This document shows positions 7,562 to 36,450 of a stretch of DNA of 38,931 nucleotides, piece after piece. Where the stretch lies: contig JBFMHI010000011.1 in NCBI GenBank assembly GCA_040753085.1, forward strand, positions 1 to 38,931, written 5' to 3'. The number at the start of each line of letters is the position of its first letter. The stretch's first letter is position 1. The notes under the pieces were generated by a model, which was given only the letters and a program-made list of their open reading frames with translations, did not search any database and was not told the origin of the DNA. The position numbers were made by a program, and so were the translations under genes. This DNA is from a bacterium (GTDB lineage Bacteria > UBA9089 > JASEGY01).

Positions 7562-7714
7562 ATTCCAATTATCAATTATTTGGTAAGGGTGAATTTTTGT
7601 AATTTTGTCTTAATTAAGCAGGTTTTGATACTAATTTTTAGATTTTTTTAAAAAACCCGAATTTTTTGTTGATTTAAGATAAAAGGGAGGCGGACGCATC
7701 CGCGAAATCATGCG

Positions 7715-7904
7715 GATGCAGAGACGGTTCGGGGCAGGTGACGCCTGCCGTTCCTCCAGCACCGCTGTAGAGGGCGATGTTTCAATCAGATGCAGAGACG
7801 GTTCGGGGCAGGTGACGCCTGCCGTTCCTCCAGCACCGCTGTAGAGGGCGATGTTTCAATCAGATGCAGAGACGGTTCGGGGCAGGTGATGCCTGCCGTT
7901 AGGT
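7715..7904. repeat. 74-bp tandem repeat (2.5 copies) ending in a GTTAGGT core
   Basis: Two identical 74-bp units (7715-7788, 7789-7862) and a truncated third (7863-7900, one mismatch). Each unit contains a hairpin GGCAGG/CCTGCC. In the third copy the sequence after GCCTGCC switches to GTTAGGT (7898-7904), which matches the attC R' consensus GTTRRRY and opens the cassette region. Because whole units are identical this is not a CRISPR. The stretch from 7562 to 7714 has only AT-rich DNA and an 8-bp GCATCCGC/GCGGATGC hairpin (about 7696-7719). Confidence 0.8.
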
Positions 7905-8594: not shown

Positions 8595-8705
8595 ACCCAA
8601 CCAGTGGCTGGAGCGGACTTGGCTACGGCAGCACGACTCTTGCGGGTGTCGCTGGCAACAGCTCCGTCGCCTCCGTCGCGCCGCTCAGCCACCGCGCTGT
8701 TAGAC
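8595..8705 (+). other. Integron attC recombination site 1
   Basis: R'' ACCCAAC (8595-8601) and R' GTTAGAC (8699-8705) fit RYYYAAC/GTTRRRY. Between them GTGGCTGgAGCGG (8604-8616) pairs with CCGCTCAGCCAC (8681-8692), leaving one unpaired G, the extrahelical base typical of attC. Orientation is canonical, downstream of a plus-strand gene. Confidence 0.82.
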
Positions 8706-9323: not shown

Positions 9324-9341
9324 ACACAGTGCTGATCCACA

Positions 9342-9399
9342 GTCTAACCAATAAATCCAGCGGATGGCTTACAGCCCCTACTGATTTAAGTCGTTAGAG
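9342..9399 (+). other. Integron attC recombination site 2
   Basis: R'' GTCTAAC (9342-9348), R' GTTAGAG (9393-9399, last base off consensus). TAAATCcAG after R'' pairs with CTGATTTA before R', again with a single extrahelical base. 58 bp, close to the classic 59-base element. Confidence 0.75.
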
Positions 9400-9437
9400 G
9401 AAAAATGACTAAAAAGTAAAATGAGAGGTTAAATGGT

Positions 9438-9827
9438 ATGGGTTATGTACGAACAAGAATTGAAATAGGTAATCCAAGAAATCCAAAACTGAAAAGAATA
9501 GAGAAAGAAGCTCTTGTAGATACAGGAGCATTGATGCTTTGTATTCCTGAACATATCTGTATTCAGATGGGCTTTGAAGAACTTGAGAAAAGAGAAGTTA
9601 TAGCAGCTGATGGTAAAAAGCAATTGGTACCTTATGTTGGACCCGTTTTAGTGCATTTTGAAAATAGAAGCTGTTTTGTAGGGGCTTTAGTATTGGGTGA
9701 TGATGTTTTGCTTGGCGCAGTTCCTATGGAAGATATGGACTTAATAGTATCGCCAGCTCATAAAAAAGTCGTTGTAAATCCCGACAGTCCTAATTTTCCT
9801 CAAGCTTTAGTTAAACAAAATATCTAA
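9438..9827 (+). CDS. Retropepsin-like aspartic protease (clan AA), copy 1
   Basis: 129 aa single-domain protein with the active-site motif ALVDTGA (Asp28) and a hydrophobic-Gly flap region (LLGAVPMEDMDL), as in gag-polyprotein-putative-aspartyl-protease families of prokaryotes (PF13650/PF13975-like). Such domains act as dimers. Substrates are unknown. No signal peptide. ATG 9438 has SD GAGAGG (9423-9428), and an out-of-frame ATG sits at 9433. Low GC compared with cassette genes 1 and 2, consistent with a different origin. Downstream lies an attC half site. Confidence 0.75.
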   Translation: MGYVRTRIEIGNPRNPKLKRIEKEALVDTGALMLCIPEHICIQMGFEELEKREVIAADGKKQLVPYVGPVLVHFENRSCFVGALVLGDDVLLGAVPMEDMDLIVSPAHKKVVVNPDSPNFPQALVKQNI

Positions 9828-9839
9828 CAAGCGATTGCG
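9822..9839 (+). other. Truncated attC (R'' half only)
   Basis: ATCTAAC (9822-9828) followed by AAGCG looks like the left half of an attC overlapping the protease stop codon. The right half is absent, and group II intron-like sequence follows instead. Confidence 0.4.
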
Positions 9840-10072
9840 AAAGGAGTAAGCAAAACCTATGTAGGTCGCCGTTGATACAAATATTGTACCGTTTCCTGAC
9901 GCATGATGATGAAGAACAATATCAAGAGACGTATGCCGTGTTTCAGTGCTCCCGAGTGTATATCTCGAATACGGTGTTTTTGGAAACAGTGAGATGCTTG
10001 AGCTGTAGGGGGAAACTTCCATGTACAGTTCTTAGGGAGGAATGGGGCTGAAAGGCCCTTGACCTACCCGAT
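9840..10072 (+). mobile_element. Group II intron 3' remnant (domains V and VI)
   Basis: Domain V can be folded at 10000-10031: GAGCTGTA pairs with TACAGTTC (containing the AGC triad), with an upper stem GGGG/TTCC closed by GAAAC. A domain VI-like hairpin (GGGGCTGAAAGGCCC) and the 3' end CCTACCCGAT at about 10072 follow. No reverse transcriptase frame and no recognisable 5' domains remain, so the left border is arbitrary. The next gene starts 37 nt after the intron end. Confidence 0.6.
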
Positions 10073-10108: not shown

Positions 10109-10492
10109 ATGGGCATGTTTAGGAAAAAGGTAATAGTTTCTAACAGCAAGGATCCTAATCAGTTCTTTGAAGAAGAATTTTGGGTAGATACGGGAGCTCT
10201 TTATTCCTTTGTCCCTGAGGATTATCTGGAAAGGATAGGCGTAGAACCGTCAGCAAAACGGAATCTGATTCTTGCTGACGGACGGCAGGATATGAGACTA
10301 CTTGGTTTTTGTGACTTTCAGATTGAAGATTTCGAAGGCAATATTCCTTGCCCCGTGATTTTCGCACCAAAGGGCTCTCTGTTCTTGCTTGGAGCGACAG
10401 CTTTGGAGAACTTTGGCGTCGAAGTGGATCCGATTCAGAAAAAGTTGAAGCCGATTCTGGCTATTATTGGGGGATTCTTGGCTTCACAATGA
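10109..10492 (+). CDS. Retropepsin-like aspartic protease (clan AA), copy 2
   Basis: 127 aa, with active site WVDTGA (Asp27) and the second-half signature LLGATALENFGVEVDP characteristic of prokaryotic clan AA proteases. Only distantly similar to the copy at 9438 (shared DTGA, EE.R-NLILADGR versus REVIAADGK, LGA), so not a recent duplication. Start ATG 10109 with SD GAGGAG (10095-10100). Its attC overlaps the 3' end region. Cytoplasmic by prediction, substrate unknown. Confidence 0.77.
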   Translation: MGMFRKKVIVSNSKDPNQFFEEEFWVDTGALYSFVPEDYLERIGVEPSAKRNLILADGRQDMRLLGFCDFQIEDFEGNIPCPVIFAPKGSLFLLGATALENFGVEVDPIQKKLKPILAIIGGFLASQ

Positions 10493-10496
10493 CAAT

Positions 10497-10555
10497 CGCT
10501 AACAACTGCGTGGAGCGGACGCGGTAAACCGCGCCGCTCACGTAGGCCGTTAGGT
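10497..10555 (+). other. Integron attC recombination site 3 (59 bp)
   Basis: CGCTAAC (10497-10503) and GTTAGGT (10549-10555). CGTGgAGCGG pairs with CCGCTCACG with one extrahelical G, and the tip is GCGG-TAAA-CCGC. The most textbook-like attC in the window. Confidence 0.88.
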
Positions 10556-10564
10556 CATAGAACG

Positions 10565-10966: not shown

Positions 10967-10983
10967 TTTAAATGGAGGGAATG

Positions 10984-11181
10984 ATGGAAAAAGTATTAGT
11001 TAACTCTAATAAATACAACGGTCAATATGTTGCAATCATAAGCGTTGATGATAACACTATAGTTGGCTCTGGCAATACTCCAGATGAGGCTTTATCTAAA
11101 GCACAGAAAAAAGGCATTCAAAAACCTTTTATCCTTTATGTTCCAGATAAAGATTTAGTTCATATCTATCATGTTGATTGA
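10984..11181 (+). CDS. DUF5678-like small protein
   Basis: About 65 aa: MEKVLVNSNKYNGQYVAIIS, then a short beta-alpha pattern (DNTIVGSGNTPDEALSKAQKKG) ending ILYVPDKDLVHIYHVD. The pattern matches the DUF5678 family, which I recall as commonly encoded just upstream of retropepsin-like proteases, as here. ATG 10984 is preferred because GGAGG (10974-10978) lies 5 nt upstream; ATG 10972 and 10981 are alternatives. Overlaps the next gene by 11 nt. Function unknown; perhaps a substrate or inhibitor of the protease. Confidence 0.7.
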   Translation: MEKVLVNSNKYNGQYVAIISVDDNTIVGSGNTPDEALSKAQKKGIQKPFILYVPDKDLVHIYHVD

Positions 11182-11566
11182 AAATTATCCTTTTACAATT
11201 ACGAGAGTAGGAGATATCGCTAGACCATATCTTCCTATTACAATTATTAATCCTGAGAATCAAAAAGAAATCAATGTGTTTGCCTTAGTTGATACTGGAG
11301 CAGATGAATGCGCTCTGCCTGCCACATTTGCCCTACCTTTGGGACATAATTTACAATCAGGCTACCAGAAAAGAATAAGTACTGGTAATGGGATAACTAC
11401 CGCTTATAGCCACACTGTCTGTATAAAAGCATTTAACTTCTTAACCGAAAATGTCTTGATTGATTTTATGCCAAATTTACATATTCCACTACTCGGTGTA
11501 AAAAGTTTCCTAAGTAATTTTATTTTGAAGATTGATTACCATGAAAAAATATTCTCAATAATATAA
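11171..11566 (+). CDS. Retropepsin-like aspartic protease (clan AA), copy 3
   Basis: 131 aa with FALVDTGADECALP (Asp41), the classic DTGAD version of the clan AA active site, and IPLLGVKSFLSNFILKID as the second conserved strand. Different from the two upstream proteases. Translationally coupled to the DUF5678-like gene by an ATG within its last codons. Ends 7 nt before an attC. Predicted cytoplasmic; partner and substrate unknown. Confidence 0.8.
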   Translation: MLIENYPFTITRVGDIARPYLPITIINPENQKEINVFALVDTGADECALPATFALPLGHNLQSGYQKRISTGNGITTAYSHTVCIKAFNFLTENVLIDFMPNLHIPLLGVKSFLSNFILKIDYHEKIFSII

Positions 11567-11572
11567 AAATCA

Positions 11573-11632
11573 ATCTAACAATTCACTTCACCTGACCGCC
11601 ATTCTGGCGGCAGGTGAGTTCTATCGTTAGAC
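11573..11632 (+). other. Integron attC recombination site 4 (60 bp)
   Basis: ATCTAAC (11573-11579) and GTTAGAC (11626-11632) both match consensus. ACTtCACCTG pairs with CAGGTGAGT with one extrahelical T, and the apical stem is CCGCCA/TGGCGG. Last attC of the first cluster. Confidence 0.88.
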
Positions 11633-11636
11633 AATA

Positions 11637-12068: not shown

Positions 12069-13082
12069 TTACTTCATAATCAACTCAGCGAAATCCTCAA
12101 ATTCTTCCAATGACTTTACTTCTATCCCCTTCCTGTGAAGAACCTTTAAGATGGAAGCATCTCTTATTTTATTTAATCTCTCCACAATTGATTGGGGAAC
12201 AGCCTCAAAACGCCGATCAAGAATATCAAGGATTCCCTGCTGCAATCCCTGCTGCAATCCCTGCTGCAATCCCTGCTGCAATCCTTGCTGCAATCCCTGC
12301 TGCATTCCTTCTTCTCTTAACACCTCAGCTATGGTAGGCATGATCTCACCTCCTTTATCCAGTAAGGCTTCATCTACCGCCGCCTTGACGTCTTCATAGG
12401 TAACATTAGAGGCAGCATTGAGTATGTATTTCAAAATGGTTTCCAAGTATTCCAGAGCCGTTCGCTTTTCCAAAAGATTTCTTAAAAGACTAAGTATTCC
12501 AGGAAGATGGTCTGTTAAATCCTCTCTAAATATGTATTTTAAAATAAGCAGCGTCATCCGTAAGATGACCTCCCCCTTGATATCCTCATCATTGTACCCG
12601 GACGCATCCCAAAGCAGATACTGAAAATCAGGGATAAACTGAACCAGATCATCAGAATAGGCAAAAAGGTCTCTGAAATTTAAGCCGGCCTGCCAATCTC
12701 CCTCGCCGTGATATAGTACCAAGGGAATGATTACCGGAAACCCCCTTTCATCTTCCTTCTTCTTAAGCCACATTTCCCATATCTTTACCATATACCTGAG
12801 AATATGAAAGGCGGTTAAAATTTCAGCATAGCTCTTGTGCTCAAAAAGGATATACACATACCCCCCTGAACCGTCCTTGAGATCTACCTCGAAAAGCAGA
12901 TCAGAGAAATATTCCTTCAGGTGTTTGTCTATAAATGAATCCTTGGTGTATTCCAGGGAATCCAAATCAAGCAGACTAACCACCTTATTAGGCAGATAAT
13001 TCAGGAGAAATTCCCTGGCTGTATTCTTTCGCGTAAAAACCTCTTTGAAGAATTTGTCGTGAGGATTAATGATCTGTTCCAT
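12069..13082 (-). CDS. Rpn/YhgA-like PD-(D/E)XK nuclease family protein (transposase_31)
   Basis: About 337 aa. The N-terminus MEQIINPHDKFFKEVFTRKN, then YTKDSFIDKHLKEYFSDLLFEVDL (catalytic Asp-x(n)-E), YVYILFEHKS (E-x-K-like) and PVIIPLVLYHGEGDW are hallmarks of recombination-promoting nuclease/putative transposase PF04754. The C-terminal quarter has the repeat QQGL x5-6, encoded by a 12-bp tandem repeat (12232-12303), then a helical tail. An in-frame TTG at 13208 would add 42 residues, but ATG 13082 begins the usual family sequence. Members act in RecA-independent recombination in E. coli; here that is inference. Confidence 0.85.
   Translation of the reverse strand: MEQIINPHDKFFKEVFTRKNTAREFLLNYLPNKVVSLLDLDSLEYTKDSFIDKHLKEYFSDLLFEVDLKDGSGGYVYILFEHKSYAEILTAFHILRYMVKIWEMWLKKKEDERGFPVIIPLVLYHGEGDWQAGLNFRDLFAYSDDLVQFIPDFQYLLWDASGYNDEDIKGEVILRMTLLILKYIFREDLTDHLPGILSLLRNLLEKRTALEYLETILKYILNAASNVTYEDVKAAVDEALLDKGGEIMPTIAEVLREEGMQQGLQQGLQQGLQQGLQQGLQQGILDILDRRFEAVPQSIVERLNKIRDASILKVLHRKGIEVKSLEEFEDFAELIMK
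12232..12303. repeat. 12-bp in-frame tandem repeat within the Rpn-like gene
   Basis: Six units of AATCCCTGCTGC with minor variation, encoding Gln-Gln-Gly-Leu repeats. Copy number likely varies by slippage without breaking the frame. Confidence 0.85.
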
Positions 13083-13216
13083 AAATAACCTGACTTCCTT
13101 ACTGAAAACTGGAGCGTAAGAGAGGAAGAATTTACTGTGGCCTTCCCGTTCTAACCGAAGCAGATATCTTACCCATTGAAATATAGCATAGATGTTACTC
13201 TTTGTCAAATAGAATC

Positions 13217-22084: not shown

Positions 22085-23104
22085 GTGTATCTTATGCAGG
22101 TCCTTTATTACTCGGATGAGATCGTCAAAGGTTTTATTCTTTAAAAATTCTTCATACTGCTTTCGATAGTCATCGATTAGACTTTCATTGTCGATAAGGA
22201 CATCATAAGCCTTCCAACCGTTGCTATACAGGGTGAGTCGATAGTCAATATGGATCTCCCGCTGGTTCTTGTAAATGATGGTGGTGGGAACAGTGGCTCC
22301 CTCATCTGTCACCACGGCCTTGCCGTAGTTGATTTCAATATCCTTGAAATACCTTTGGGCTCCGCTGATAGAGAAGGCAGTCAGAACCGGCGTGTAATAG
22401 TTTAAATATTCTTTCCTTTGCTTGGCTGAGGCTTTTTCCCAATATTTTCCCAGGGAGAGACGGCATTGTTTCTCAGGGTCCATAAAGGTCCGAAAACGAT
22501 CGTGATCTTTAAGGCGAATAGTCGCGATCAGCTTCTTGATGGTTGTTCCGGGATCATCTACCAATGGCGCACCCACTTCCTGGGTACCCGGGATGGCAGA
22601 TGGCGGAGAGGTATCCGGTGCCACTGAAACAAAGGTAGTGTCTGCGCCTGTGGTATCAGCTATTGGAGAAGACGGAATGGTATCAGATGTAATGGCTTGA
22701 GAAGAGGTGTCAGGTGTGAGGGCATTTACCGCTCTGGTATCGGTGGCCGTGGTGTCAGCTACGACGGTGACTGAAGTGGTACAGTACCAGATGGCGGATG
22801 GCGCACCCACTTCCTGGGTACCCGGGAGGATGGCGGATTGAGTATCGGCTATCTTGACACAGGTTACTCCGGCGGGAAGATTTATTACCTCTTCTGAAGA
22901 TAGTGATTTCACTTCCCAGGAATCCGAGGGCACACCCACTTCGTGGGTAGCCGGGATAGCGGGATTGAAAATCCGAAATCCCGGGTACCCACGAAGTGGG
23001 TGCGAAATCTGAAATGGAGAAGCACTCCATCCCCTTTCAACAGCTAAAAGCGAACCAAGTATAAGACCAACGGCGCCTAAGGTCTTCCATTTTTTGCTCA
23101 TCAT
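22046..23104 (-). CDS. MlaC/HpnM-like (Ttg2D) periplasmic lipid-binding protein with repeat-derived insertions
   Basis: 352 aa. Signal peptide (LGAVGLILGSLLAVERGWSA), then a ~150-residue low-complexity region containing four copies of a palindromic element, each in frame (three read IPGTQEVGAP-like, one reads HPLRGYPG), plus Thr/Asp/Ala-rich spacers. The MlaC/Ttg2D domain (PF05494-like) fills about 185-335: IRLKDHDRFRTFMDPEKQ, TYLNYYTPVL-type helix, SNGWKAYDVLIDNESLIDDYRKQYEEFL. Such proteins ferry lipids across the periplasm; the downstream MMPL transporter is the likely partner. ATG with SD AGGAGG, and a second ATG one codon later. The C-terminal 12 residues come from a dispersed repeat. 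Confidence 0.82.
   Translation of the reverse strand: MMSKKWKTLGAVGLILGSLLAVERGWSASPFQISHPLRGYPGFRIFNPAIPATHEVGVPSDSWEVKSLSSEEVINLPAGVTCVKIADTQSAILPGTQEVGAPSAIWYCTTSVTVVADTTATDTRAVNALTPDTSSQAITSDTIPSSPIADTTGADTTFVSVAPDTSPPSAIPGTQEVGAPLVDDPGTTIKKLIATIRLKDHDRFRTFMDPEKQCRLSLGKYWEKASAKQRKEYLNYYTPVLTAFSISGAQRYFKDIEINYGKAVVTDEGATVPTTIIYKNQREIHIDYRLTLYSNGWKAYDVLIDNESLIDDYRKQYEEFLKNKTFDDLIRVIKDLHKIHVTTQANRLKAED
22566..22597 (-). repeat. In-frame palindromic element, copy 1 (mlaC-like gene)
   Basis: Plus-strand core GCGCACCCACTTCCTGGGTA then CCCGGGAT. Encodes AIPGTQEVGAP at about residues 169-179 on the minus strand. Confidence 0.8.
22800..22835 (-). repeat. In-frame palindromic element, copy 2 (mlaC-like gene)
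   Basis: Same core as copy 1 with an extra GGA before ATGGCGG. Encodes ILPGTQEVGAP at about residues 90-101. Confidence 0.8.
22930..22962 (-). repeat. In-frame palindromic element, copy 3 (mlaC-like gene)
   Basis: CACACCCACTTCGTGGGTAG then CCGGGAT. Encodes AIPATHEVGVP at about residues 48-58. Faces copy 4, only 15 bp away, as an inverted pair. Confidence 0.8.
22978..23004 (+). repeat. In-frame palindromic element, copy 4, inverted (mlaC-like gene)
   Basis: ATCCCGGGTACCCACGAAGT then GGGTGCG, the reverse complement of the other copies. Encodes HPLRGYPG at about residues 34-42 through the opposite strand of the element. Confidence 0.8.
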
Positions 23105-28662: not shown

Positions 28663-29654
28663 AAAACTACAAATTCTGGGTCAGCATTCTACTTAGCATT
28701 TTTTTCCTCTGGCTGGCCGTGCGAGGGGTCGACCTTGATGAGATGATAGAAGCGATTGCTAAGGTTAGTTGGGTTTATATTATTCCTATCGGAGTGGTCA
28801 GCTTAAGCACTTTTATTCTCCGGGCCTTCCGGTGGAGGTACCTGCTCAGTTATGAAAAACACATCAGGCTTCACTCACTTTTTTCCTATACCATTATTGG
28901 GTTTATGGCCAACAATGTCTTTCCTTTACGGATTGGCGAGCTGGTTCGGGCTTACATTATTGGCAAAAAGGAAGAAATCTCTAAGATCCGCTCTTTAGCC
29001 ACTATTATCATGGAGCGAATATTCGATGGCCTATCTTTACTTTTTTTTCTAACCCTGGTTCTGCTTTACCACCCTGGTTTTCCTGATTGGGTAAAAGAAA
29101 TGGGTCTGATGCTGGCCCCTGTCTTCTTTCTTGCTTTTGGCGGGCTTATTGTATTGGAGTGGCATCAAGACTGGTTCCTGAAGTTTACCCATTGGCTGAC
29201 GGGACATATTTCACCTAAACTGTCAAGTAGAGTAGTGGGCAGTTTACAGTCCTTTATCCACGGACTGGCTATCTTACGTCGAATAGATCATCTTCTGATA
29301 ACTTTTTTTCTCTCTTTAGCCCTTTGGGTAGTTTATGCCGGTATGTTCTACCTGGCCCTTCAGGCTTTTCATATCCATCATTTACCCTTGTATGCTTCTT
29401 TGTTCGTTCTGACAGTGACTGCCTTTGGGGTGATGCTCCCTTCTTCACCTGGTTTTATCGGCCCCTTTCAGTATTTTTGCGCCAAGGCCCTTCTTCTGAT
29501 GGGGCTTAAAGATAAAAGCCTGGCTTTAAGCTATGCCTTCTTCCTTCACGCTATTCAGTATGTCCTTATTACTTTAGTTGGTTTGGGCTATCTTTGGAAG
29601 GAAAATCTCTCCTTTAGTGATCTGAAGAAGGCCAAGGAAACGAATGAAGTTTAA
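28659..29654 (+). CDS. Lysylphosphatidylglycerol-synthase-TM / UPF0104-type membrane protein
   Basis: 331 aa with about 8 TM helices, matching the flippase-like LPG_synthase_TM (AglD) family: RAFRWRYLLSYEKHIRLHSLFSYTIIGFMANNVFPLRIGELVRAYIIGKKEEISKIRSLATIIMERIFDGL near the N-terminus and PSSPGFIGPFQYF near the end are the conserved segments. Family members transport or modify lipids or lipid-linked sugars. Coupled to the upstream glycosyltransferase by a 4-nt overlap, which suggests one glycolipid or polysaccharide pathway. The group II intron begins just after its stop. Confidence 0.85.
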   Translation: MKNYKFWVSILLSIFFLWLAVRGVDLDEMIEAIAKVSWVYIIPIGVVSLSTFILRAFRWRYLLSYEKHIRLHSLFSYTIIGFMANNVFPLRIGELVRAYIIGKKEEISKIRSLATIIMERIFDGLSLLFFLTLVLLYHPGFPDWVKEMGLMLAPVFFLAFGGLIVLEWHQDWFLKFTHWLTGHISPKLSSRVVGSLQSFIHGLAILRRIDHLLITFFLSLALWVVYAGMFYLALQAFHIHHLPLYASLFVLTVTAFGVMLPSSPGFIGPFQYFCAKALLLMGLKDKSLALSYAFFLHAIQYVLITLVGLGYLWKENLSFSDLKKAKETNEV

Positions 29655-29659
29655 GGCAG

Positions 29660-30372
29660 GAGGAGGTTAAGGCCGGTTACAGAAGTTACCGACGGAAAAC
29701 CTGGGCGTCGGGGAAGGGATTCCAGCAACCCCGGCGAGCCTGGAAAGCAGGGACACAAATCTCTGGAATCAGCCTGCCGAACGACAACGTTGAAGCGTAC
29801 ACAGGGCACCACACAGACCGTAGGGAAGACCGCACTTCCCAAAGTTTGATACAGCCTCGTTAAAGAGTGAGGGGGCGCAAGTCTCAAGAGCAGATGGCGA
29901 TGGTTCCTTCGCAAGCTCAGGACATGGTTAACGGGCCAGAAGCTACCACAGAGAGAGCGCTTTGGTGAGTTCTCCGAGGGTCTGCCGGGGTTCACTTTAG
30001 AGCGTGGTATGTGTGGAGAGAAGCATCAGGGACTTGGGATGCCCCAGCGGTTCCTGGGCTGGTACATGGGTTTAGGAGAGTCAGAAACCACTGGGGAGTC
30101 AGATCAGCCCATAGTACTCAGAGAACGGTAGGGCCGTTCACAGGGGGAAGGGGCTGACAGTCATTCGTAGCCTGCATAGGCAACATTGGCCGGACAAGGA
30201 GGGCCGGGAGTCAATGTCCACTTTCTTGCAGGGAATAGCGAAGAAGGCTCGGGCTGGGCGGGTCTACTAGGGCCGAAGGCGGAAGCAAGGATAACTGAAG
30301 AGCCCGATGCGGGAAAACTGCATGCCGGGATCTGTGCGGGGGCGGTCAGGTAACTAGCCGTCCTACCGCGAT
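29660..30372 (+). mobile_element. Degenerate group II intron lacking its reverse transcriptase
   Basis: Domain V folds at 30300-30332 (GAGCCCG...CGGGATC lower stem, TGCGG/CTGCA upper stem with GAAA), domain VI and the end CCTACCGCGAT at 30372 follow. Upstream are structured domain I-III-like sequences (from about 29665) and only the first codons of the maturase: ESDQPIVLRER then stop (30096-30131), and SMSTFLQGIAKKARAG in another frame to a stop at 30270. Everything from the RT catalytic domain onward is deleted, joining the ORF start almost directly to domain V. The 5' boundary is uncertain; no clear GTGYG start. Confidence 0.7.
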
Positions 30373-30387
30373 GGCTGTCAAAAAATA
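30326..30387 (+). repeat. 62-bp direct repeat, copy 1 (intron 3' end plus exon)
   Basis: Covers the 3' strand of domain V, domain VI and 15 nt beyond the intron (GGCTGTCAAAAAATA). Identical to 31027-31088, exactly 701 bp away. Confidence 0.9.
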
Positions 30388-30406
30388 AACTGTGGGGGTG
30401 ATTGTT

Positions 30407-30655
30407 ATGCCACGATTGACAATGGAAGGGGTGTATCATAAGGGGATTATTATTCCCCAAGAAGAGGTGCCATATAATTCGGATATGCGAGTCTTGATTA
30501 CATTTACTAAAAAAATTCCAAGGAGGGAACTTTATGCTTACACTCCCCAAATTCAGAAGGCATTAGCAAAAGCAGAGGCAAACTATAAGGCAGGTAAATT
30601 CAAGGAATATAAAGATGCGGATACCTTATTCAAGGATTTGAATAATGCTGCTTGA
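30407..30655 (+). CDS. Antitoxin of a RelBE/ParDE-type module
   Basis: 82 aa. N-terminal beta strands MPRLTMEGVYHKGIIIPQEEV...MRVLITF resemble the AF2212/DUF104-like antitoxin start; the C-terminal half (ALAKAEANYKAGKFKEYKDADTLFKDLN) is a RelB-like toxin-binding helix. ATG 30407 has SD-like GGGGGTG (30394-30400); a GTG at 30392 is less likely. Overlaps the toxin gene by 11 nt. Begins 35 nt after the group II intron end. Confidence 0.75.
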   Translation: MPRLTMEGVYHKGIIIPQEEVPYNSDMRVLITFTKKIPRRELYAYTPQIQKALAKAEANYKAGKFKEYKDADTLFKDLNNAA

Positions 30656-30914
30656 AAGAAAAATTGCCAAAGATGATAATTTTGATAAGTATTATGACGC
30701 TTTGCCAGAATACATCAAAAGAAAGTTTGAGAAGCAAGTAAGGTTTTTGTTGAAGAACCCAAAACATCCATCGCTGAAGATTCATCGATTTGAAAGTATT
30801 AAAGGATTGTGGGAATTTTATGTAGATGATTACTATCGATGTTTGTTTTCAATCGAAAGTAACACTTACCTTCTTAAATGGGTTGGAACCCATCTGCAGA
30901 TGGAGAGGAAGTAG
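30645..30914 (+). CDS. RelE/ParE-family toxin
   Basis: 89 aa, typical size. Helix-helix N-terminus (FDKYYDALPEYIKRKFEKQVRFLLKNPKHPSLKIHRF) and beta-sheet end GLWEFYVDDYYRCLFSIESNTYLLKWVGTHLQMERK are characteristic of YafQ/RelE-like ribosome-dependent mRNA interferases. The catalytic His/Arg residues appear present (R in YYRCLF, H in GTHLQ). Coupled to the antitoxin. Followed by a truncated attC, so probably acquired as an integron cassette. Confidence 0.85.
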   Translation: MLLERKIAKDDNFDKYYDALPEYIKRKFEKQVRFLLKNPKHPSLKIHRFESIKGLWEFYVDDYYRCLFSIESNTYLLKWVGTHLQMERK

Positions 30915-31001
30915 TGTTTTTTAAAAAAGGGATAAAAAGCGTTAATTTAGCTAGATAAGTAAGTATCTTAAGACACGAGAAAATTGCAAAGCGGACTTTT
31001 T

Positions 31002-31026
31002 GCCTAACCAATCGCTGAAGATACGT
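31002..31026 (+). other. Truncated attC (left half) abutting the intron-derived repeat
   Basis: GCCTAAC (31002-31008) is a perfect R''; AATCGCTGAAG follows as L''-like sequence, after which the site is replaced by copy 2 of the 62-bp intron-end repeat at 31027. Preceding GGACTTTTTG matches the context before the attC at 32513 (GGACTTTTGT). Confidence 0.6.
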
Positions 31027-31088
31027 CGGGATCTGTGCGGGGGCGGTCAGGTAACTAGCCGTCCTACCGCGATGGCTGTCAAAAAATA
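31027..31088 (+). repeat. 62-bp direct repeat, copy 2 (intron 3' end plus exon)
   Basis: Identical to 30326-30387. The rest of the intron is missing here. Confidence 0.9.
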
Positions 31089-31110
31089 GCGACTGGAGAT
31101 TGGAAAGGAT

Positions 31111-31440
31111 ATGAAAGCAAAGGCAATTCCTGACGATGTGAGAAAAAGTGTTGAAGAAATCGTCGAGCGATTCAACCGCGAGAACTTGAGGAGAGACGAC
31201 TGCTACTACTCAGTGCGGTTCAGAGGGAGATGCGCTTATCTTGACCGATACGCCTATGGCAAGGTGGGGCCAATATGCTGCCTCAGGTATACAGGAAAGA
31301 TGGATGGCTGGGAATTCGCCATATTCAAGTGGAGCAGTGAAACATACGATCCAAAAGAGTGGATGTTCCCAGGCATTAGCCTTGTAGATGGAACCATTGA
31401 AGGGGCAATGAAGGCTGGATTGAAAGCATATCCGGTATAA
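31111..31440 (+). CDS. Hypothetical cassette protein
   Basis: 109 aa soluble protein of unknown function: helical start (DDVRKSVEEIVERFNRENL), then a beta-rich core with CYYSVRFRGRCAYLDRYAYGKVGPICCLRYTG and WEFAIFKWSSETYDPKEWMFPG, and a final helix (DGTIEGAMKAGLKAYP). The pattern is one I associate with hypothetical proteins in integron arrays. SD AAAGGA before ATG. Its stop codon overlaps the attC R'' sequence. No signal peptide. Confidence 0.65.
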   Translation: MKAKAIPDDVRKSVEEIVERFNRENLRRDDCYYSVRFRGRCAYLDRYAYGKVGPICCLRYTGKMDGWEFAIFKWSSETYDPKEWMFPGISLVDGTIEGAMKAGLKAYPV

Positions 31441-31562
31441 CAACATGATGGAGCCGACCGCGCATCAGGCATACGATGTTTGGGCAGGCATTGTGGGATT
31501 GGCTCTCCGCCTTTGGCAGTTTTTCCATAGTTCTACGCGGCGGCTCATCGCGGGCGTTAGAT
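31435..31562 (+). other. Integron attC recombination site 5 (128 bp)
   Basis: GTATAAC (31435-31441) and GTTAGAT (31556-31562). GATGgAGCC pairs with GGCTCATC, leaving one extrahelical G, followed by CGCG-rich pairing. Canonical orientation downstream of the hypothetical gene. Confidence 0.78.
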
Positions 31563-31743
31563 GGTTCGAGAATTGAGACATGTTGACATGCTCCGCTCGC
31601 CCAAAACAACACCGCTTGGTGCTTGAGGCGAGTAGGAGTATTTGAGGAGGTGGGAGAAATGGGGCACTGAAAAGTACAAAACCAGAAGAGAAAGGGAACG
31701 GTGATAGACTATGCCAAAATTATACAACAAAGGAGTGATTTAA

Positions 31744-32007
31744 ATGAGAAAATCAGTTATCCATGATAAAATAATGGAAGAAATTAAATTTATTCCAGAA
31801 GATAAACTGTCAGAGATATACGATGTTATTCATTATTTTTGGATAGGTTTGCAAAAATCTAAAGTGAATATTAACCAGATAATGCAATTTGCCGGTTGCT
31901 GGAATGATATTCCTGAAGATGCATTTAATGATTTTTTAGAAGAAACCAGACAACGTAGAAGTCAGGCTTTTTCAAGGAGACGAAGCGGTGGAACCAGTAT
32001 TAGTTGA
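31744..32007 (+). CDS. vapB: VapB-type antitoxin (DUF2281-like)
   Basis: 87 aa. Helical protein: KSVIHDKIMEEIKFIPEDKLSEIYDVIHYFWIGLQ is typical of DUF2281 antitoxins, and the C-terminal part (GCWNDIPEDAFNDFLEETRQRRSQAFSRRR) matches the toxin-binding 'aGsW.d..e..fe.f..ei..rR' motif. SD AAAGGAG before ATG 31744. Overlaps the PIN toxin gene by 20 nt. Confidence 0.82.
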   Translation: MRKSVIHDKIMEEIKFIPEDKLSEIYDVIHYFWIGLQKSKVNINQIMQFAGCWNDIPEDAFNDFLEETRQRRSQAFSRRRSGGTSIS

Positions 32008-32395
32008 TACAGACATCCTATCCCTGTTCTTTAGAAACCAGGATAATGTTGTCTCTAATTTCAAAAAATATCTTAACCGGTACGAAAAAATAAATCTGAG
32101 TATCATTACCTACTATGAAATTCTTAGTGGTTTAAAACACAGAGACGCATTGAAACAACTAGACTCATTTCTGGAGTTTACAAAGCATAACACTATTCTA
32201 TCGTTAACTAAAGAATCAGTTATGATTTCATCGGATTTATACAGTAATTTGCGAAAAGCAGGAAGACCGATCGATGATATTGATATCATTATTGCAGGTA
32301 TTGCTTTGTCAAACAATCTTGTTCTTGTGACCAATAATGAAGAACATTTCAGAAATATCAAAGGCTTAGAAATTTTGAATTGGAGTAAAAAATAA
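31988..32395 (+). CDS. vapC: PIN-domain toxin VapC
   Basis: 135 aa endoribonuclease of the PIN family. Acidic active-site residues are in place: Asp7 in VLVDTDILS, Glu44 in TYYEILSGL, Asp96-97 and Asp99 in RPIDDIDIIIAGIA, and LVTNNEEHFRNIKGLEILNW closes the domain. GTG start at 31988 with SD AAGGAG (31974-31979) inside the antitoxin gene. The module is followed by an attC, as in chromosomal integrons that stabilise arrays with toxin-antitoxin cassettes. Confidence 0.93.
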   Translation: MEPVLVDTDILSLFFRNQDNVVSNFKKYLNRYEKINLSIITYYEILSGLKHRDALKQLDSFLEFTKHNTILSLTKESVMISSDLYSNLRKAGRPIDDIDIIIAGIALSNNLVLVTNNEEHFRNIKGLEILNWSKK

Positions 32396-32512
32396 GGCGA
32401 CTTTGTCTAACACAGGTTAAAAGATTGACATCGGAACGTGAGTTAGGGCAGGTCTTGATTATGGAACACAGAAATAAGAAGAAAAGAAAAAAGACGGCGA
32501 AGTGGGACTTTT

Positions 32513-32646
32513 GTCTAACCAGTCGCTGCACCTGACAGTGGGGGCTGGGGTGTGTTTGAGATAGTTTTGTGATTTATCTAGGTTTTACCTTGCTAATAAA
32601 GTTTAGTGGTAATTCTCCCCGCAGCAGGTGAGCGTGCTCGTTAGTG
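32513..32646 (+). other. Integron attC recombination site 6 (134 bp)
   Basis: GTCTAAC (32513-32519) and GTTAGTG (32640-32646, off consensus at the last bases). CGCTgCACCTG pairs with CAGGTGAGCG with one extrahelical G. Large central region, within the known attC size range. Confidence 0.7.
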
Positions 32647-32689
32647 GTAGATGAGACTGAATTTGTTCATGCGGAGAGAAATATAGAAA

Positions 32690-32711
32690 GAGGTTTTGGG
32701 ATAGGCTCTTA
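32690..32711 (-). repeat. Partial TAAGAGCCTATCCC element at the 3' end of the PBP2 gene
   Basis: On the minus strand TAAGAGCCTATCCCAAAACC (from 32711), the same end as at 7267 and 13217. Its first three bases are the stop codon of the PBP2 gene. Confidence 0.7.
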
Positions 32712-34532
32712 GGGGCTGGATGGCTGAGTAGTAGCTACCTTCAAGTTTGAGGTGGAGTTTTCAGTAAAGTATGTTTCCATTATCTTTCTGGCGATCGGGG
32801 CAGCGGCGGCACCGCCGTGACCACCGTGTTCGACCAGCACAGAGACAGCTAATTCAGGTTTATCTACCGGCGCAAAGCACATGAACCAGGCATGATCTTC
32901 TCCATGCGGGTTCTGGGCCGTGCCCGTCTTGCCACCGATCCTTAAGTCCTTGATTTTGGCCTGCCAGCCTGTACCTCGCGAGACCACCCCCTCCAGGGCA
33001 TTGTGAAGCAAAGATAAGGTAGTTCGCTTTAGAGAAAATTTCCGCAACAACTGAGGTTCAAAAGAATTTATTACCTTTCCGTCAGGACTATGGATGGCCT
33101 TCACTACCAACGGCTTATATATCCTCCCCCCGTTGACTACCGCCGCCATGAGGTTAGCCAATTGAATAGGGGTAGTCAAGAGATAGCCCTGGCCAATACT
33201 AAAATTAACCGTTTCTCCCAGGTGCCATCGTTCACCTAAAGTCTTTTTTTTCCAGGCTGGATCAGGGACAAGACCCGGCTTCTCATGAGGAAAGGAAATT
33301 TGAGAAAACTGACCAAGCCCAAAATTTCTGGCCATTTCAGCCATTCTTTCCGCGCCTACCTTGAGTCCTAACTGATAGAAGTAGACATTACAGGAATGGA
33401 TAATAGCTTCTTCCAGGTTCTTCCAGCCATGTCCCTGTTCCTTCCAGCAGGCATATCTCCTGCCTAAATAGTAGCTTCCTCCGCAGTAAAAGGTTTCTGA
33501 AGGCTTAACCAGATTATTTTCCAGGGCAGCCGAAGCCACCACTATCTTGAACTGAGATCCGGGAGAATATTGAGCAGAAATGGCCCGGTTTAGCAAGGGA
33601 TAACGGGGATCAGAAAAGAAATCTTTAATCTTGATCTTCTTCTGGGGGCTGACAAACACATTTGGGTCAAAAGCCGGTTTACTGGCCATAGCCAGAATTC
33701 CCCCAGTATTAACATCCAGAACAACCACTGCCCCGCGGCTGTCGCCTAAGGCCTCCTCAGCCGTACGCTGCAGGGCATAATCGATAGTCAAGGTTAAATT
33801 GTCTCCCAGAGTGGGGTCTTTTCTGGAGATGGTCCCAAGTCTACGCCCCTTTACGTCTACCTCTACTTGTTCTACTCCATTTTCCCCCCTCAGGTAATCG
33901 TCAAACTCTCTTTCTACCCCCGCCTTTCCAATCAAATCCCCGGAACGATACCCTTTCTGCCTTAGTTCCTCCAATTCCGCCCCGCTTACCTCCCCCAGAT
34001 AACCGATGATGTGCGCGGCCAGATCACCGTAGACATAGTCCCTTCGGGGGCTTACCTGAATAATTACCCCCGGCAGGTCTATCTTTCTTTCAGCCACCTG
34101 GGTCATAGTCTTTCGGTCAACGTCCTGGATAATTAAGGCCGGATTAAAAGGGCAATGGGCTTCTTTAGACAGGCGCTCTCTTATCTCGGTGGGAGAAAGA
34201 TTCAATATCCGACTTAAGCCAGTGATGGTGCGTTCTAATATCTGGGGAGAAAGCCCAAGCTGGATAACAGAAATATCAAAGGAAGGGCGATTTCTAACCA
34301 GCACCGTGCCTTTTCGGTCAAGGATCCTACCCCGGGGAGCCGTGACAGGAATGAATTGAATCCGGTTCTCCTCTGATTCTTTTTTGAACCCTCCTCCTTG
34401 AAGGATTTGGACCTGATAAAGACGAAGCACAACCACGGAAAAGAAGAAGGCAAATATGGTGCCTACTATTATTATTTTCCTCCGGGCAAGCTTTATATCT
34501 TCCCTGGTAGTATTTGAATAAATCATGGGCAC
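32709..34532 (-). CDS. mrdA: Penicillin-binding protein 2
   Basis: 607 aa class B transpeptidase of the elongasome, anchored by one N-terminal TM helix (IIIVGTIFAFFFSVVVLRLYQ). PBP dimerisation domain starts at APRGRILDRKG; the transpeptidase domain has SxxK S326-Q-F-K329, SCN at 380-382 and KTG at 535-537. All catalytic residues present and length typical. Start ATG 34532, with ATG 34526 two codons in. The C-terminal VATTQPSSP and stop are supplied by dispersed repeat sequence. RodA is not adjacent. Confidence 0.95.
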   Translation of the reverse strand: MPMIYSNTTREDIKLARRKIIIVGTIFAFFFSVVVLRLYQVQILQGGGFKKESEENRIQFIPVTAPRGRILDRKGTVLVRNRPSFDISVIQLGLSPQILERTITGLSRILNLSPTEIRERLSKEAHCPFNPALIIQDVDRKTMTQVAERKIDLPGVIIQVSPRRDYVYGDLAAHIIGYLGEVSGAELEELRQKGYRSGDLIGKAGVEREFDDYLRGENGVEQVEVDVKGRRLGTISRKDPTLGDNLTLTIDYALQRTAEEALGDSRGAVVVLDVNTGGILAMASKPAFDPNVFVSPQKKIKIKDFFSDPRYPLLNRAISAQYSPGSQFKIVVASAALENNLVKPSETFYCGGSYYLGRRYACWKEQGHGWKNLEEAIIHSCNVYFYQLGLKVGAERMAEMARNFGLGQFSQISFPHEKPGLVPDPAWKKKTLGERWHLGETVNFSIGQGYLLTTPIQLANLMAAVVNGGRIYKPLVVKAIHSPDGKVINSFEPQLLRKFSLKRTTLSLLHNALEGVVSRGTGWQAKIKDLRIGGKTGTAQNPHGEDHAWFMCFAPVDKPELAVSVLVEHGGHGGAAAAPIARKIMETYFTENSTSNLKVATTQPSSP

Positions 34533-34572: not shown

Positions 34573-36450
34573 TCACGATAGGCAAGCGGCTATCCGAGCT
34601 AAGGATTGACTTAGCCTGAAGGCCGCTCTTTGCAAATGTTGGTAACACCAGAGCGACCTTCTGGCCGTTCTGAGGGCTCCCTCTTCTTGAATGGCCGCAT
34701 CGTCAATGTAAGCCATATAGCTCAGCCCACTTAGCGGGTCCCTCAGTCGAATGGCCTCATCGATCTTATCCAGTCGGCTAATAATAGGATTGATTTCTGA
34801 CTGGCGGTCCTGGCCCGCCTTTAAGATCTGATAGAGATTTCTGGAGAGGCTAACTCCTTCCTCAGCCAACTGGGCAATCTGGGTAAATCCAATTCCTATC
34901 TGGGCTAATGTCTTGCTCAAATTAAAGTCAGTAGTTACGGCAGAGCGACTGGTAATTCGATCAAGAGTCGGATTTAATTCGATAGCCAACCTTTTGGCCA
35001 CCATAGTCAGGATTTCTTTCTCAGAGATAATATCTGTGCCGTCTTTCATCCCTTGCCAGATATTGAGGAAACAATAACGCAGGATCTCCCTGATTACCTC
35101 TGATGGATTAGTTTCTCCCTTATTCAAGGGAAAGTAGGCGAAAGATCTGGTCGGTTCTTCATCCCCGGAATAGAATAGATCGATCTGCTGGAAAGATAAG
35201 GCGGTGATAGCTTCCTTGGCTTTGTCCCCATCCCTTTCCAGTAAGATTCGGGCGGCTGAAATAACTGCCTCCGGCGTGATTAACTCCATGCAGGTGTGTT
35301 CTGGACAGGTAACCTTAGCACATCCCCGGCAGGGAACCTTAGCCTGAAGGACGAGATGGCCCGGGCCGTAAGGCCCTACCCAGTTTGGTCCGGCTATTAC
35401 TACAACCGGTGTGCCAACTGCTCCGGCAATGTGGGCTGGGCCAGTGTCTCCGGAAATGAACAATCGGCAGTTAGCTAACCAGCCGGTTAGTTCTCTGAGG
35501 CTGGTTTGACCGGCCAGATTCAGGGGGGATGGCGCACCCACTTCGTGGGTACCCGGGATGGCGGAATTCCGCACCTGAGCCGAAATCTGGGCGGCCCGGT
35601 CCTGATCATCTTTGCCCCCGAAGATAACTACCTGCGCCCCATAGGCTTCAGCTAAAAGGTCTACCAACCGGGCAAAATATTCCACCTTCCAGCGTCGAGA
35701 AGGATAATTAGCCCCAGGATGTATCCCAATCAATTTCGGATTTTCCATGCCGCCTTCTGCATTCCGCCTGCCGCCTTCCGATATAGTTGTTCTCCGCTTA
35801 GAAGGATTGACATCAGCCATCAGCAGGTGAATCTCGACCGAACTCAGGGGATTAAGGTGGCATCGTTCCGGATTGGTCGTAATCCAATATTTGTAATGTA
35901 TCCAGGGATGTCCTAAAACTACAGGCTGGCTGTTATCGGTCACAGTTAAGCCCCAAACATCTTTATTAGTAATCAATTTAGTCAGGAAGGCGCTTCGGGG
36001 GGAGGTATGCAGGTTAATGACCAGATCAAATTGCTCGGCATAAACAGGCTCAACCCAGGCCATTAGTTCTCTTATGGTTTCATCTACCTTACCGGCGATC
36101 AGTTTCTTGGCCCATTTGGCTTTTTCAAAGACAATAACTTTGTCCAGGTTAGGATCATCCCTGACCAATTCAGCCGGCGCTTCCTCGGTCAGGAAACATA
36201 TCTTTGCCTCTTTGAACTTTTCTCGAAGCCCCCAAAAAACCGGGGTGGTGTAAACCACATCCCCAATAGAGGAAAGTTGAATAAGCAGGATACTCTCCGG
36301 CTCTCTTGTCTGAGAGGTTAAAAGATACTTAAGGCCTACCCCTTTAGCCCAATTTCTTTGCAGGATAGATTGGGCCAGTAATTGGTATAGTTTCAAGTTC
36401 TCGGCACCCGCTGGCCGGTCGTCGAGTTTCGAGTTAAGATCACCTGTCAC
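34573..36450 (-). CDS. Family 9 glycosyltransferase (heptosyltransferase-like) with extra C-terminal domain
   Basis: 625 aa. The GT9 part (about 45-420) resembles ADP-heptose:LPS heptosyltransferases: ILLIQLSSIGDVVYTTPVFWGLR, LIGIHPGANYPSRRWKVEYFARLVDLL, SGDTGPAHIAGAVGTPVVVIAGP, plus a Cys cluster CRGCAKVTCPEHTC. About 200 further helical residues follow, without a recognised family. Residues about 297-306 (AIPGTHEVGAP) are an in-frame palindromic element that also occurs in the mlaC-like gene; EGGRRNAEGGM at about 230 looks like another repeat-derived insertion. GTG start with no good alternative; its first codons lie in a CGAAACTCGA repeat. Fits the gmhA/gmhB pathway. Confidence 0.82.
   Translation of the reverse strand: MTGDLNSKLDDRPAGAENLKLYQLLAQSILQRNWAKGVGLKYLLTSQTREPESILLIQLSSIGDVVYTTPVFWGLREKFKEAKICFLTEEAPAELVRDDPNLDKVIVFEKAKWAKKLIAGKVDETIRELMAWVEPVYAEQFDLVINLHTSPRSAFLTKLITNKDVWGLTVTDNSQPVVLGHPWIHYKYWITTNPERCHLNPLSSVEIHLLMADVNPSKRRTTISEGGRRNAEGGMENPKLIGIHPGANYPSRRWKVEYFARLVDLLAEAYGAQVVIFGGKDDQDRAAQISAQVRNSAIPGTHEVGAPSPLNLAGQTSLRELTGWLANCRLFISGDTGPAHIAGAVGTPVVVIAGPNWVGPYGPGHLVLQAKVPCRGCAKVTCPEHTCMELITPEAVISAARILLERDGDKAKEAITALSFQQIDLFYSGDEEPTRSFAYFPLNKGETNPSEVIREILRYCFLNIWQGMKDGTDIISEKEILTMVAKRLAIELNPTLDRITSRSAVTTDFNLSKTLAQIGIGFTQIAQLAEEGVSLSRNLYQILKAGQDRQSEINPIISRLDKIDEAIRLRDPLSGLSYMAYIDDAAIQEEGALRTARRSLWCYQHLQRAAFRLSQSLARIAACLS
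35531..35562 (-). repeat. In-frame palindromic element, copy 5 (GT9 gene)
   Basis: GCGCACCCACTTCGTGGGTA then CCCGGGATGGCGG on the plus strand. Encodes AIPGTHEVGAP in a loop just before NLAGQTSLREL. Confidence 0.85.

What the first reader, a model, noticed from the sequence alone, without database searches (positions are those of the whole stretch)
31002..32646. Second attC cluster carrying toxin-antitoxin cassettes
A truncated attC (31002) and two full sites (31435-31562 and 32513-32646) follow a RelBE-like pair, an orphan gene and a VapBC pair. Toxin-antitoxin cassettes are known stabilisers of sedentary chromosomal integrons. Two separate attC clusters about 19 kb apart in one window suggest a dispersed or broken integron, or repeated off-target insertion.
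Basis: partly seen in the sequence, partly recalled or inferred. Interest (0 to 1): 0.7.

Follow-up and report, generated by a model that had tools for sequence, protein, structure and literature searches.

The report
Scattered integron cassettes with intron remnants
This stretch is a small, decayed group of integron gene cassettes (two of them toxin-antitoxin pairs) carrying pieces of a self-splicing mobile intron, and it is one of about thirty cassette sites scattered singly through this bacterium's chromosome, which shows gene cassettes settling far from any integron.

Summary
Two full attC sites (31436-31562, 32514-32646) follow an orphan gene and a VapBC pair; a third attC survives only as its left arm (31002-31026) behind a weakly RelE/ParE-like pair.

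The window is contig C11 of a 3.05-Mb draft genome with no intact integron integrase, only three decayed intI fragments. An attC covariance model finds 30 sites (E<=0.01) on 22 contigs, mostly single cassettes beside housekeeping genes (map/rpsM, plsX, groEL; an intron-vapBC unit lies between trpB and trpA). 30 of 37 sites start within 36 nt of an ORF stop (random 15%). A congeneric genome carries the relBE cassette elsewhere, 89% identical, with attC-like arms and no intron.

Best reading: integrase-driven insertion of cassettes at secondary chromosomal sites (attG-like), then integrase decay. Two group II intron families lie in attC R' sites in cassette orientation. CALINs, attG insertion and integron introns are each known; the scatter and repeated intron-cassette-attC order are a new variant.

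The parts
29655..30372 (+). group II intron (family A), 5'-truncated and with its RT gene deleted; 3' end (domains V-VI) at 30298-30372
   Evidence: Rfam RF00029 39.7 bits, E 1.3e-5, gathering score 40, and weak group-II-D1D4-6 at 29853-29991; matches a congeneric intron whose D1-D4 passes the Rfam threshold
30214..30270 (+). 19-codon remnant of the intron reverse-transcriptase gene start, then a deletion
   Evidence: translation, compared by eye with the RT start fragment of the intron in the congeneric genome
30373..30390 (+). 5' border of the relBE cassette; GGC completes an R' core GTTA^GGC
   Evidence: same border without intron in the congeneric genome
30407..30655 (+). partner gene of the RelE/ParE-like toxin (putative antitoxin)
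   Evidence: position only; no antitoxin family match
30645..30914 (+). RelE/ParE-like protein
   Evidence: weak ParE_like match, below cut-off; 89% identical protein in the congeneric genome
31002..31026 (+). left arm of an attC, right arm missing
31027..31073 (+). last 47 nt of the family A intron
   Evidence: identical to 30326-30372; R1 E 6e-8
31074..31088 (+). 15 nt copied from the relBE leader
   Evidence: identical to 30373-30387
31111..31440 (+). orphan cassette gene, 109 aa
   Evidence: no Pfam or NCBIfam assignment; one distant plasmid match
31436..31562 (+). attC site with long central loop
   Evidence: for; missed by R2, fold no better than shuffles
31744..32007 (+). VapB-like antitoxin gene
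   Evidence: weak VAPB_antitox match; overlaps vapC
31988..32395 (+). VapC (PIN) toxin gene
32514..32646 (+). attC site with long central loop
8595..8705 (+). cluster 1 attC
9341..9400 (+). cluster 1 attC
   Evidence: in the R2 training set
9998..10072 (+). 3' end of another group II intron in cluster 1
   Evidence: Rfam RF00029 45.5 bits, above gathering
10496..10556 (+). cluster 1 attC
   Evidence: in the R2 training set
11572..11633 (+). cluster 1 attC
   Evidence: in the R2 training set

Best explanation
The segment is a CALIN-type remnant: gene cassettes put into a chromosomal site away from any integron, decaying after the integrase was lost. Circular cassettes were inserted one at a time by an integron integrase acting in trans at secondary (attG-like) sites all over the chromosome. 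Group II introns had inserted inside the R' core of some cassette attC sites, in cassette orientation (GTTA^GGC). An R' split this way still reads G|TTA, so I infer that the integrase could still cut it and carried the intron along at the cassette's 5' end; that would give the order intron, cassette, attC with no attC upstream. In the window this left an RT-deleted, 5'-truncated intron before relBE; a second intron end then replaced the right arm of the relBE attC. Shown: attC sites, intron ends, the intron-free relBE cassette in a relative, the scatter, the integrase fragments. Inferred: integrase insertion, the order of events, intron hitchhiking, and that the TA pairs work.
For: 30 attC hits at E<=0.01 on 22 contigs; 24 of the 30 were not in the model's training set. 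Control: 35 of 42 genomes of other phyla have none, 14 of 17 of the same phylum have 3-29. 30 of 37 sites start within 36 nt of an ORF stop against 15% of random positions; with ORFs of 70 aa or more, 21 of 37 lie between -12 and +20 nt against 4%. Flanks are housekeeping genes in normal order: rpsL-rpsG-attC-fusA, adk-map-cassette-attC-rpsM-rpsK-rpsD, eno-attC-gap, plsX, groEL (names read by me from ORF starts). Cassette-type content: toxin-family protein at 11 of 37 sites. Integrase: only C13, C125 and C197 fragments. R' cores keep GTT or GAT in 36 of 37 sites; of 6 departures from GTT, 5 are GAT, as expected for integrase hybrids with GWT sites (consensus recalled, not read). relBE cassette at another locus in G001, 89% identical, with no intron at GGC. 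Intron identity.
Against: No empty site is shown. The 5' border motif GTTRRRY is not enriched upstream of solitary cassettes. The neighbourhood of cluster 2 is not syntenic in G001, so rearrangement is not excluded. One GAT site (C78) is in the R2 training set, which favours finding others. All family A 5' ends in the own genome but one (C78) are truncated, so hitchhiking is not directly visible. The congeneric intron (G001 C118) sits in an attC left arm, not in R' (by eye). 'relBE' is weakly supported. Draft assembly: three sites lie within 300 nt of a contig end.
Confidence: 0.66

Rival explanations
1. One formerly contiguous chromosomal integron was broken up by genome rearrangement and the pieces drifted apart.
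For: Contig order around cluster 2 differs in the congeneric genome; three intI fragments lie on three contigs; cluster 1 still holds four attC in about 3 kb.
Against: Most sites are single (16 of 22 contigs carry one hit) and several sit between genes whose usual order is intact on both sides (rpsG/fusA, map/rpsM), which rearrangement would have split.
Confidence: 0.18
2. The unit intron-cassette-attC moves as one retroelement: the RT-deleted group II intron, helped in trans, carries the cassette as 3' passenger.
For: 5 of 7 family A 3' ends are followed by a cassette gene and an attC or attC part (the window half site); three copies (window, C2, C10) lost the RT gene at nearly the same place; the exact 62-nt duplication copies intron end plus 15 nt of leader.
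Against: Most scattered cassettes have no intron; no RT over cut-off in the assembly; reverse splicing normally drops the 3' exon (general knowledge).
Confidence: 0.1
3. The attC-like hairpins are dispersed terminators or REP/MITE-like palindromes, unrelated to integrons.
For: Two cluster 2 sites are missed by the model and one folds no better than shuffles; the attC between rpsG and fusA has no cassette gene.
Against: R and L box layout with bulge, stop-codon spacing, cassette-type genes, intI remnant next to a cassette and an attC on C13.
Confidence: 0.06

Closest known systems
CALIN (cluster of attC sites lacking an integron integrase)
   Same: two or more attC sites with cassettes and no integrase nearby; read as degraded integrons (PMC9024848, passages)
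   Different: about thirty sites in one genome, mostly single; group II intron pieces at cassette borders
Cassette insertion at secondary / attG sites (Loot et al. 2024; seen only as a citation and in passages of PMC12444791 and PMC12901181)
   Same: cassettes with one attC spread over many chromosomal loci
   Different: natural, old and decayed, in an uncultured phylum with the integrase lost; the broad spread cited was experimental in E. coli (PMC12444791, passage)
Group IIC-attC introns (Leon and Roy 2009, not held, recalled and as summarised in PMC7923331, passages)
   Same: group II intron inserted at an attC site in cassette arrays or CALINs
   Different: known ones lie in the bottom strand, opposite to the cassettes, at TTGT/T of R''; family A lies in cassette orientation at GTTA^GGC of R'
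UHB.I2, a group IIB intron directly after an attC, in cassette orientation (PMC7923331, passages)
   Same: orientation and position of the second intron family (B) of this genome, next to TA cassettes
   Different: B is present at least five times, at different cassettes

Membership tests
CALIN | at least two attC sites close together | tested here: met
   31436-31562 and 32514-32646, 0 of 400 shuffles as good; own scan and model, not IntegronFinder's
CALIN | no integron integrase nearby | tested here: met
   TIGR02249 over the own genome: no match on C11, none over cut-off anywhere
complete integron | intact intI with attI | tested here: not met
   only fragments on C13, C125, C197
group IIC-attC intron | bottom-strand insertion, opposite to the cassettes | tested here: not met
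   family A and B copies in the own genome run with the cassettes
group IIC-attC intron | RT of the IIC-attC lineage | tested here: inconclusive
   no RT over cut-off; the RT fragment in G001 had no PDB match; no tree made
group II intron (any class) | domain V/VI fold and D1-D4 | tested here: met
   RF00029 39.7 vs gathering 40, E 1.3e-5 in the window; congeneric copy D1-D4-6 54 vs 49; family B D1-D4-7 in three copies over gathering
attG-type insertion | hybrid border at G|WT | tested here: inconclusive
   5 of 6 R' cores that depart from GTT are GAT; consensus recalled; no empty site
VapBC toxin-antitoxin | PIN toxin with upstream antitoxin | tested here: met
   PF01850, solved VapC match; antitoxin weak
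RelBE/ParE toxin-antitoxin | RelE/ParE fold toxin | tested here: inconclusive
   E 0.044 below cut-off; model pLDDT 62

The most novel reading that the evidence does not exclude
A composite mobile unit exists in this lineage: a group II intron, without its own RT, that lives in the R' core of attC and rides at the 5' end of gene cassettes, which the integrase then scatters singly through the chromosome. The intron gains spread without its own retromobility, and each cassette gains a portable leader that could splice out of the transcript or bring a promoter.
Probability: 0.15. Interest if true: 0.78.

Novelty: new variant of a known kind. Interest (0 to 1): 0.58.

Why it matters
If right, cassettes in this phylum behave as single-gene insertions across the chromosome, even inside ribosomal-protein operons, so an integron need not be an array. 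It gives natural, evolved insertions against which the experimental attG work can be checked, and it ties group II introns to cassette borders in cassette orientation, which bears on the open question of how introns and cassettes co-travel and how cassettes arise.

Tried and rejected
Leon-Roy style cassette formation (intron joining a gene to an attC): rejected for this case, since the intron lies at the 5' border of the cassette, not between gene and attC. Circle opened inside one intron (3' part upstream, 5' part downstream of a cassette, as on C10): rejected, because the upstream piece is family A and the downstream piece family B, whose 5' ends differ. Empty-site test at trpB-trpA in G001: the DNA search did not match those genes there. 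Empty site for cluster 2: neighbours on separate contigs. Intron-attC link in other relatives: R1 hits 12 of 61 genomes, but of the 22 newly fetched relative loci only one has an attC hit, weak (E 0.028), so the link is not general. Upstream GTTRRRY borders: about background. RelE fold by single-sequence AlphaFold2: poor, no fold search made. attC arms after the C29 and C2 intron cassettes: not found by the loose scan. Promoter scan of the cluster: 11 promoter-like sites against a shuffle mean of 5, no terminator-like site; not used. Identifying the phylum: not possible; G001 matches MAG Yes70-08 (same contig coordinates), whose name gives no phylum, and the paper tried did not name it (passages).

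Full report
WHAT IS THERE. The finding is real. Reading 29000-34500 gives, on the + strand: the end of an LPG-synthase-like gene (stop 29654), a group II intron remnant, a two-gene cassette with a weakly RelE/ParE-like toxin, a half attC, a second intron end, an orphan gene with a full attC, a VapBC pair with a full attC, and then PBP2 on the other strand. The two full sites are the only candidates of their kind in 29600-32700 and 0 of 400 shuffles match their score (motif partly post hoc). My covariance model R2 does not find them, nor 8595-8705, because of long central loops; folding supports 32513-32646 (7 of 200 shuffles as good) but not 31434-31563 (66 of 200). The half site shares 17 nt with the left arm of a full attC on contig C70.

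THE INTRON. A 62-nt exact repeat (30326-30387 and 31027-31088) is the end of a group II intron plus 15 nt of the following leader. Rfam gives RF00029 at 30298-30372 with 39.7 bits, just under the gathering score of 40, E 1.3e-5, and a weak D1-D4-6 match (E 0.0026) upstream; the related intron in a congeneric genome passes the D1-D4-6 threshold. The window copy has lost its 5' end and its RT gene, of which 19 codons remain. A model of this 3' end (R1) has seven hits in the own genome: two in the window and one each on C2, C10, C78, C29 and C101; five of these seven were its training set. Five of the seven are followed by a cassette-like gene and an attC or part of one; C29 shows an R'-like end by eye only, and C2 none. 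Where the 5' end survives (C78), it follows an attC directly...CCGTTA, then GTGCG; the 3' exon starts with GGC in six of seven copies as read (the C2 copy has GCC), so the target reads GTTA^GGC, an R' core, in cassette orientation. The congeneric genome G001 carries the relBE cassette at 89% identity over window 30381-30927, with GGC at the same border, no intron, and attC-like arms after the toxin gene (by eye; R2 does not score this one). A second intron family, B, starts directly after the R' of attC on C68, C203, C52, C10 and C101 (found among loci already chosen for attC, so the count is not unbiased); three of these pass the Rfam threshold for D1-D4-7.

GENOME-WIDE SCATTER. The window is contig C11 of a 3.05-Mb, 250-contig genome, 97% complete. 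R2, built from six short sites, finds 30 sites at E<=0.01 on 22 contigs; 16 contigs carry one. Six of the 30 are training sites. In 61 genomes 35 of 42 from other phyla have no hit; 14 of 17 from the same phylum have 3 to 29, and the congeneric genome 11. I examined 37 sites: 34 R2 hits (four of them weaker than E 0.01) and three by eye; one further R2 hit was the minus-strand reading of 11572-11633 and was dropped. 30 of 37 begin within 36 nt of the stop of an ORF of 50 aa or more against 15% of random positions in the same loci. Twenty-eight of the 52 ORFs listed, plus two further ORFs (a PIN gene on C52 and the HicB-like partner there), were scanned with Pfam: MazF/PemK, BrnT (two, one below cut-off), HepT, ParE, HicA, a Gp49/HigB-like toxin and three PIN proteins among them; with the window's VapC, 11 of 37 sites have a toxin-family protein. 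Others are aspartyl proteases (5 of 37 sites, two of them below cut-off), PhzF, GyrI-like, MutH-like and DUF2442 proteins. Neighbouring genes, named by me from their first residues, are housekeeping genes in usual order, including rpsG-attC-fusA and map-cassette-attC-rpsM; the vapBC unit on C29 lies between trpB and trpA.

HOW IT LIKELY AROSE. Three intI fragments on C13, C125 and C197 (read) show that an integrase was once present; G001 has a frameshifted one. R' cores keep G[T/A]T in 36 of 37 sites and five of the six departures from GTT are GAT, chance about 1e-4 if the nine single-base changes were equally likely; this fits hybrids with GWT-type secondary sites, a consensus I recall from Loot et al. 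2024 and did not read. One of the five was in the training set. Insertion at secondary sites that leaves a cassette with a single site is in print (PMC2426708, passage), as are CALINs (PMC9024848, passages; PMC12444791, passages) and TA abundance in such arrays (PMC7923331, passages). That an intron-split R' stays cleavable, and so lets the intron ride along, is my inference.

AGAINST. No empty site; no enrichment of GTTRRRY at 5' borders; cluster 2's neighbourhood is rearranged relative to G001; the intron-attC link is not seen in the other relatives; the family A relative in G001 sits in an attC left arm, not in R' (by eye).

NOVELTY. Each ingredient is known. I found no report of solitary cassettes at this density with introns at their borders in cassette orientation in the searches (PMC open-licence text only; the key subscription papers are not held). 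I file it as a new variant of a known kind.

Noticed in passing
window 9438-9827, 10109-10492, 11171-11566; also C10, C30, C101: Retropepsin-like aspartyl protease genes recur as integron cassettes (5 of 37 attC sites end one); one overlaps a DUF5678 gene (10972-11181) in a TA-like two-gene layout. Function unknown.
   Followed up: partly
window 30326-30387 and 31027-31088: Exact 62-nt duplication of intron end plus 15 nt of relBE leader; how it was copied (template switch, retrotransposition with 3' passenger, gene conversion) is unexplained.
   Followed up: partly
window 35528-35568, 22563-23009: Palindromic repeat (CACCCACTTCGTGGGTACCCGGGAT-type) lies in frame inside two genes, coding IPGTxEVGAPS-like peptides; many further matches to the 35.5-kb copy lie on contigs of the congeneric genome.
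   Followed up: no
window 7708-7900: Three tandem 45-74-nt copies of an attC-right-arm-like sequence, the last ending in GTTAGGT, before the first cassette of cluster 1.
   Followed up: no
L009, L010, L011 (contigs C13, C125, C197): Three intI remnants, each keeping the region around the integron-specific patch; the C13 one is followed by an attI-like stretch, one cassette and an attC at the contig end.
   Followed up: partly
window 9823-10072: Half attC followed by a broken vapC start fused to a different group II intron 3' end: the same kind of scar as at 31002.
   Followed up: partly
window 12069-13208: YhgA-like (PF04754) gene with six 12-nt tandem repeats coding a Q/G-rich stretch, next to cluster 1.
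   Followed up: no
L051 about 1780-1945 and L128 about 1020-1180: Shared element of about 150 nt with GTGACTAAC...GTTAATCAC ends in the congeneric genome, near an intron and near the relBE cassette; MITE-like.
   Followed up: no
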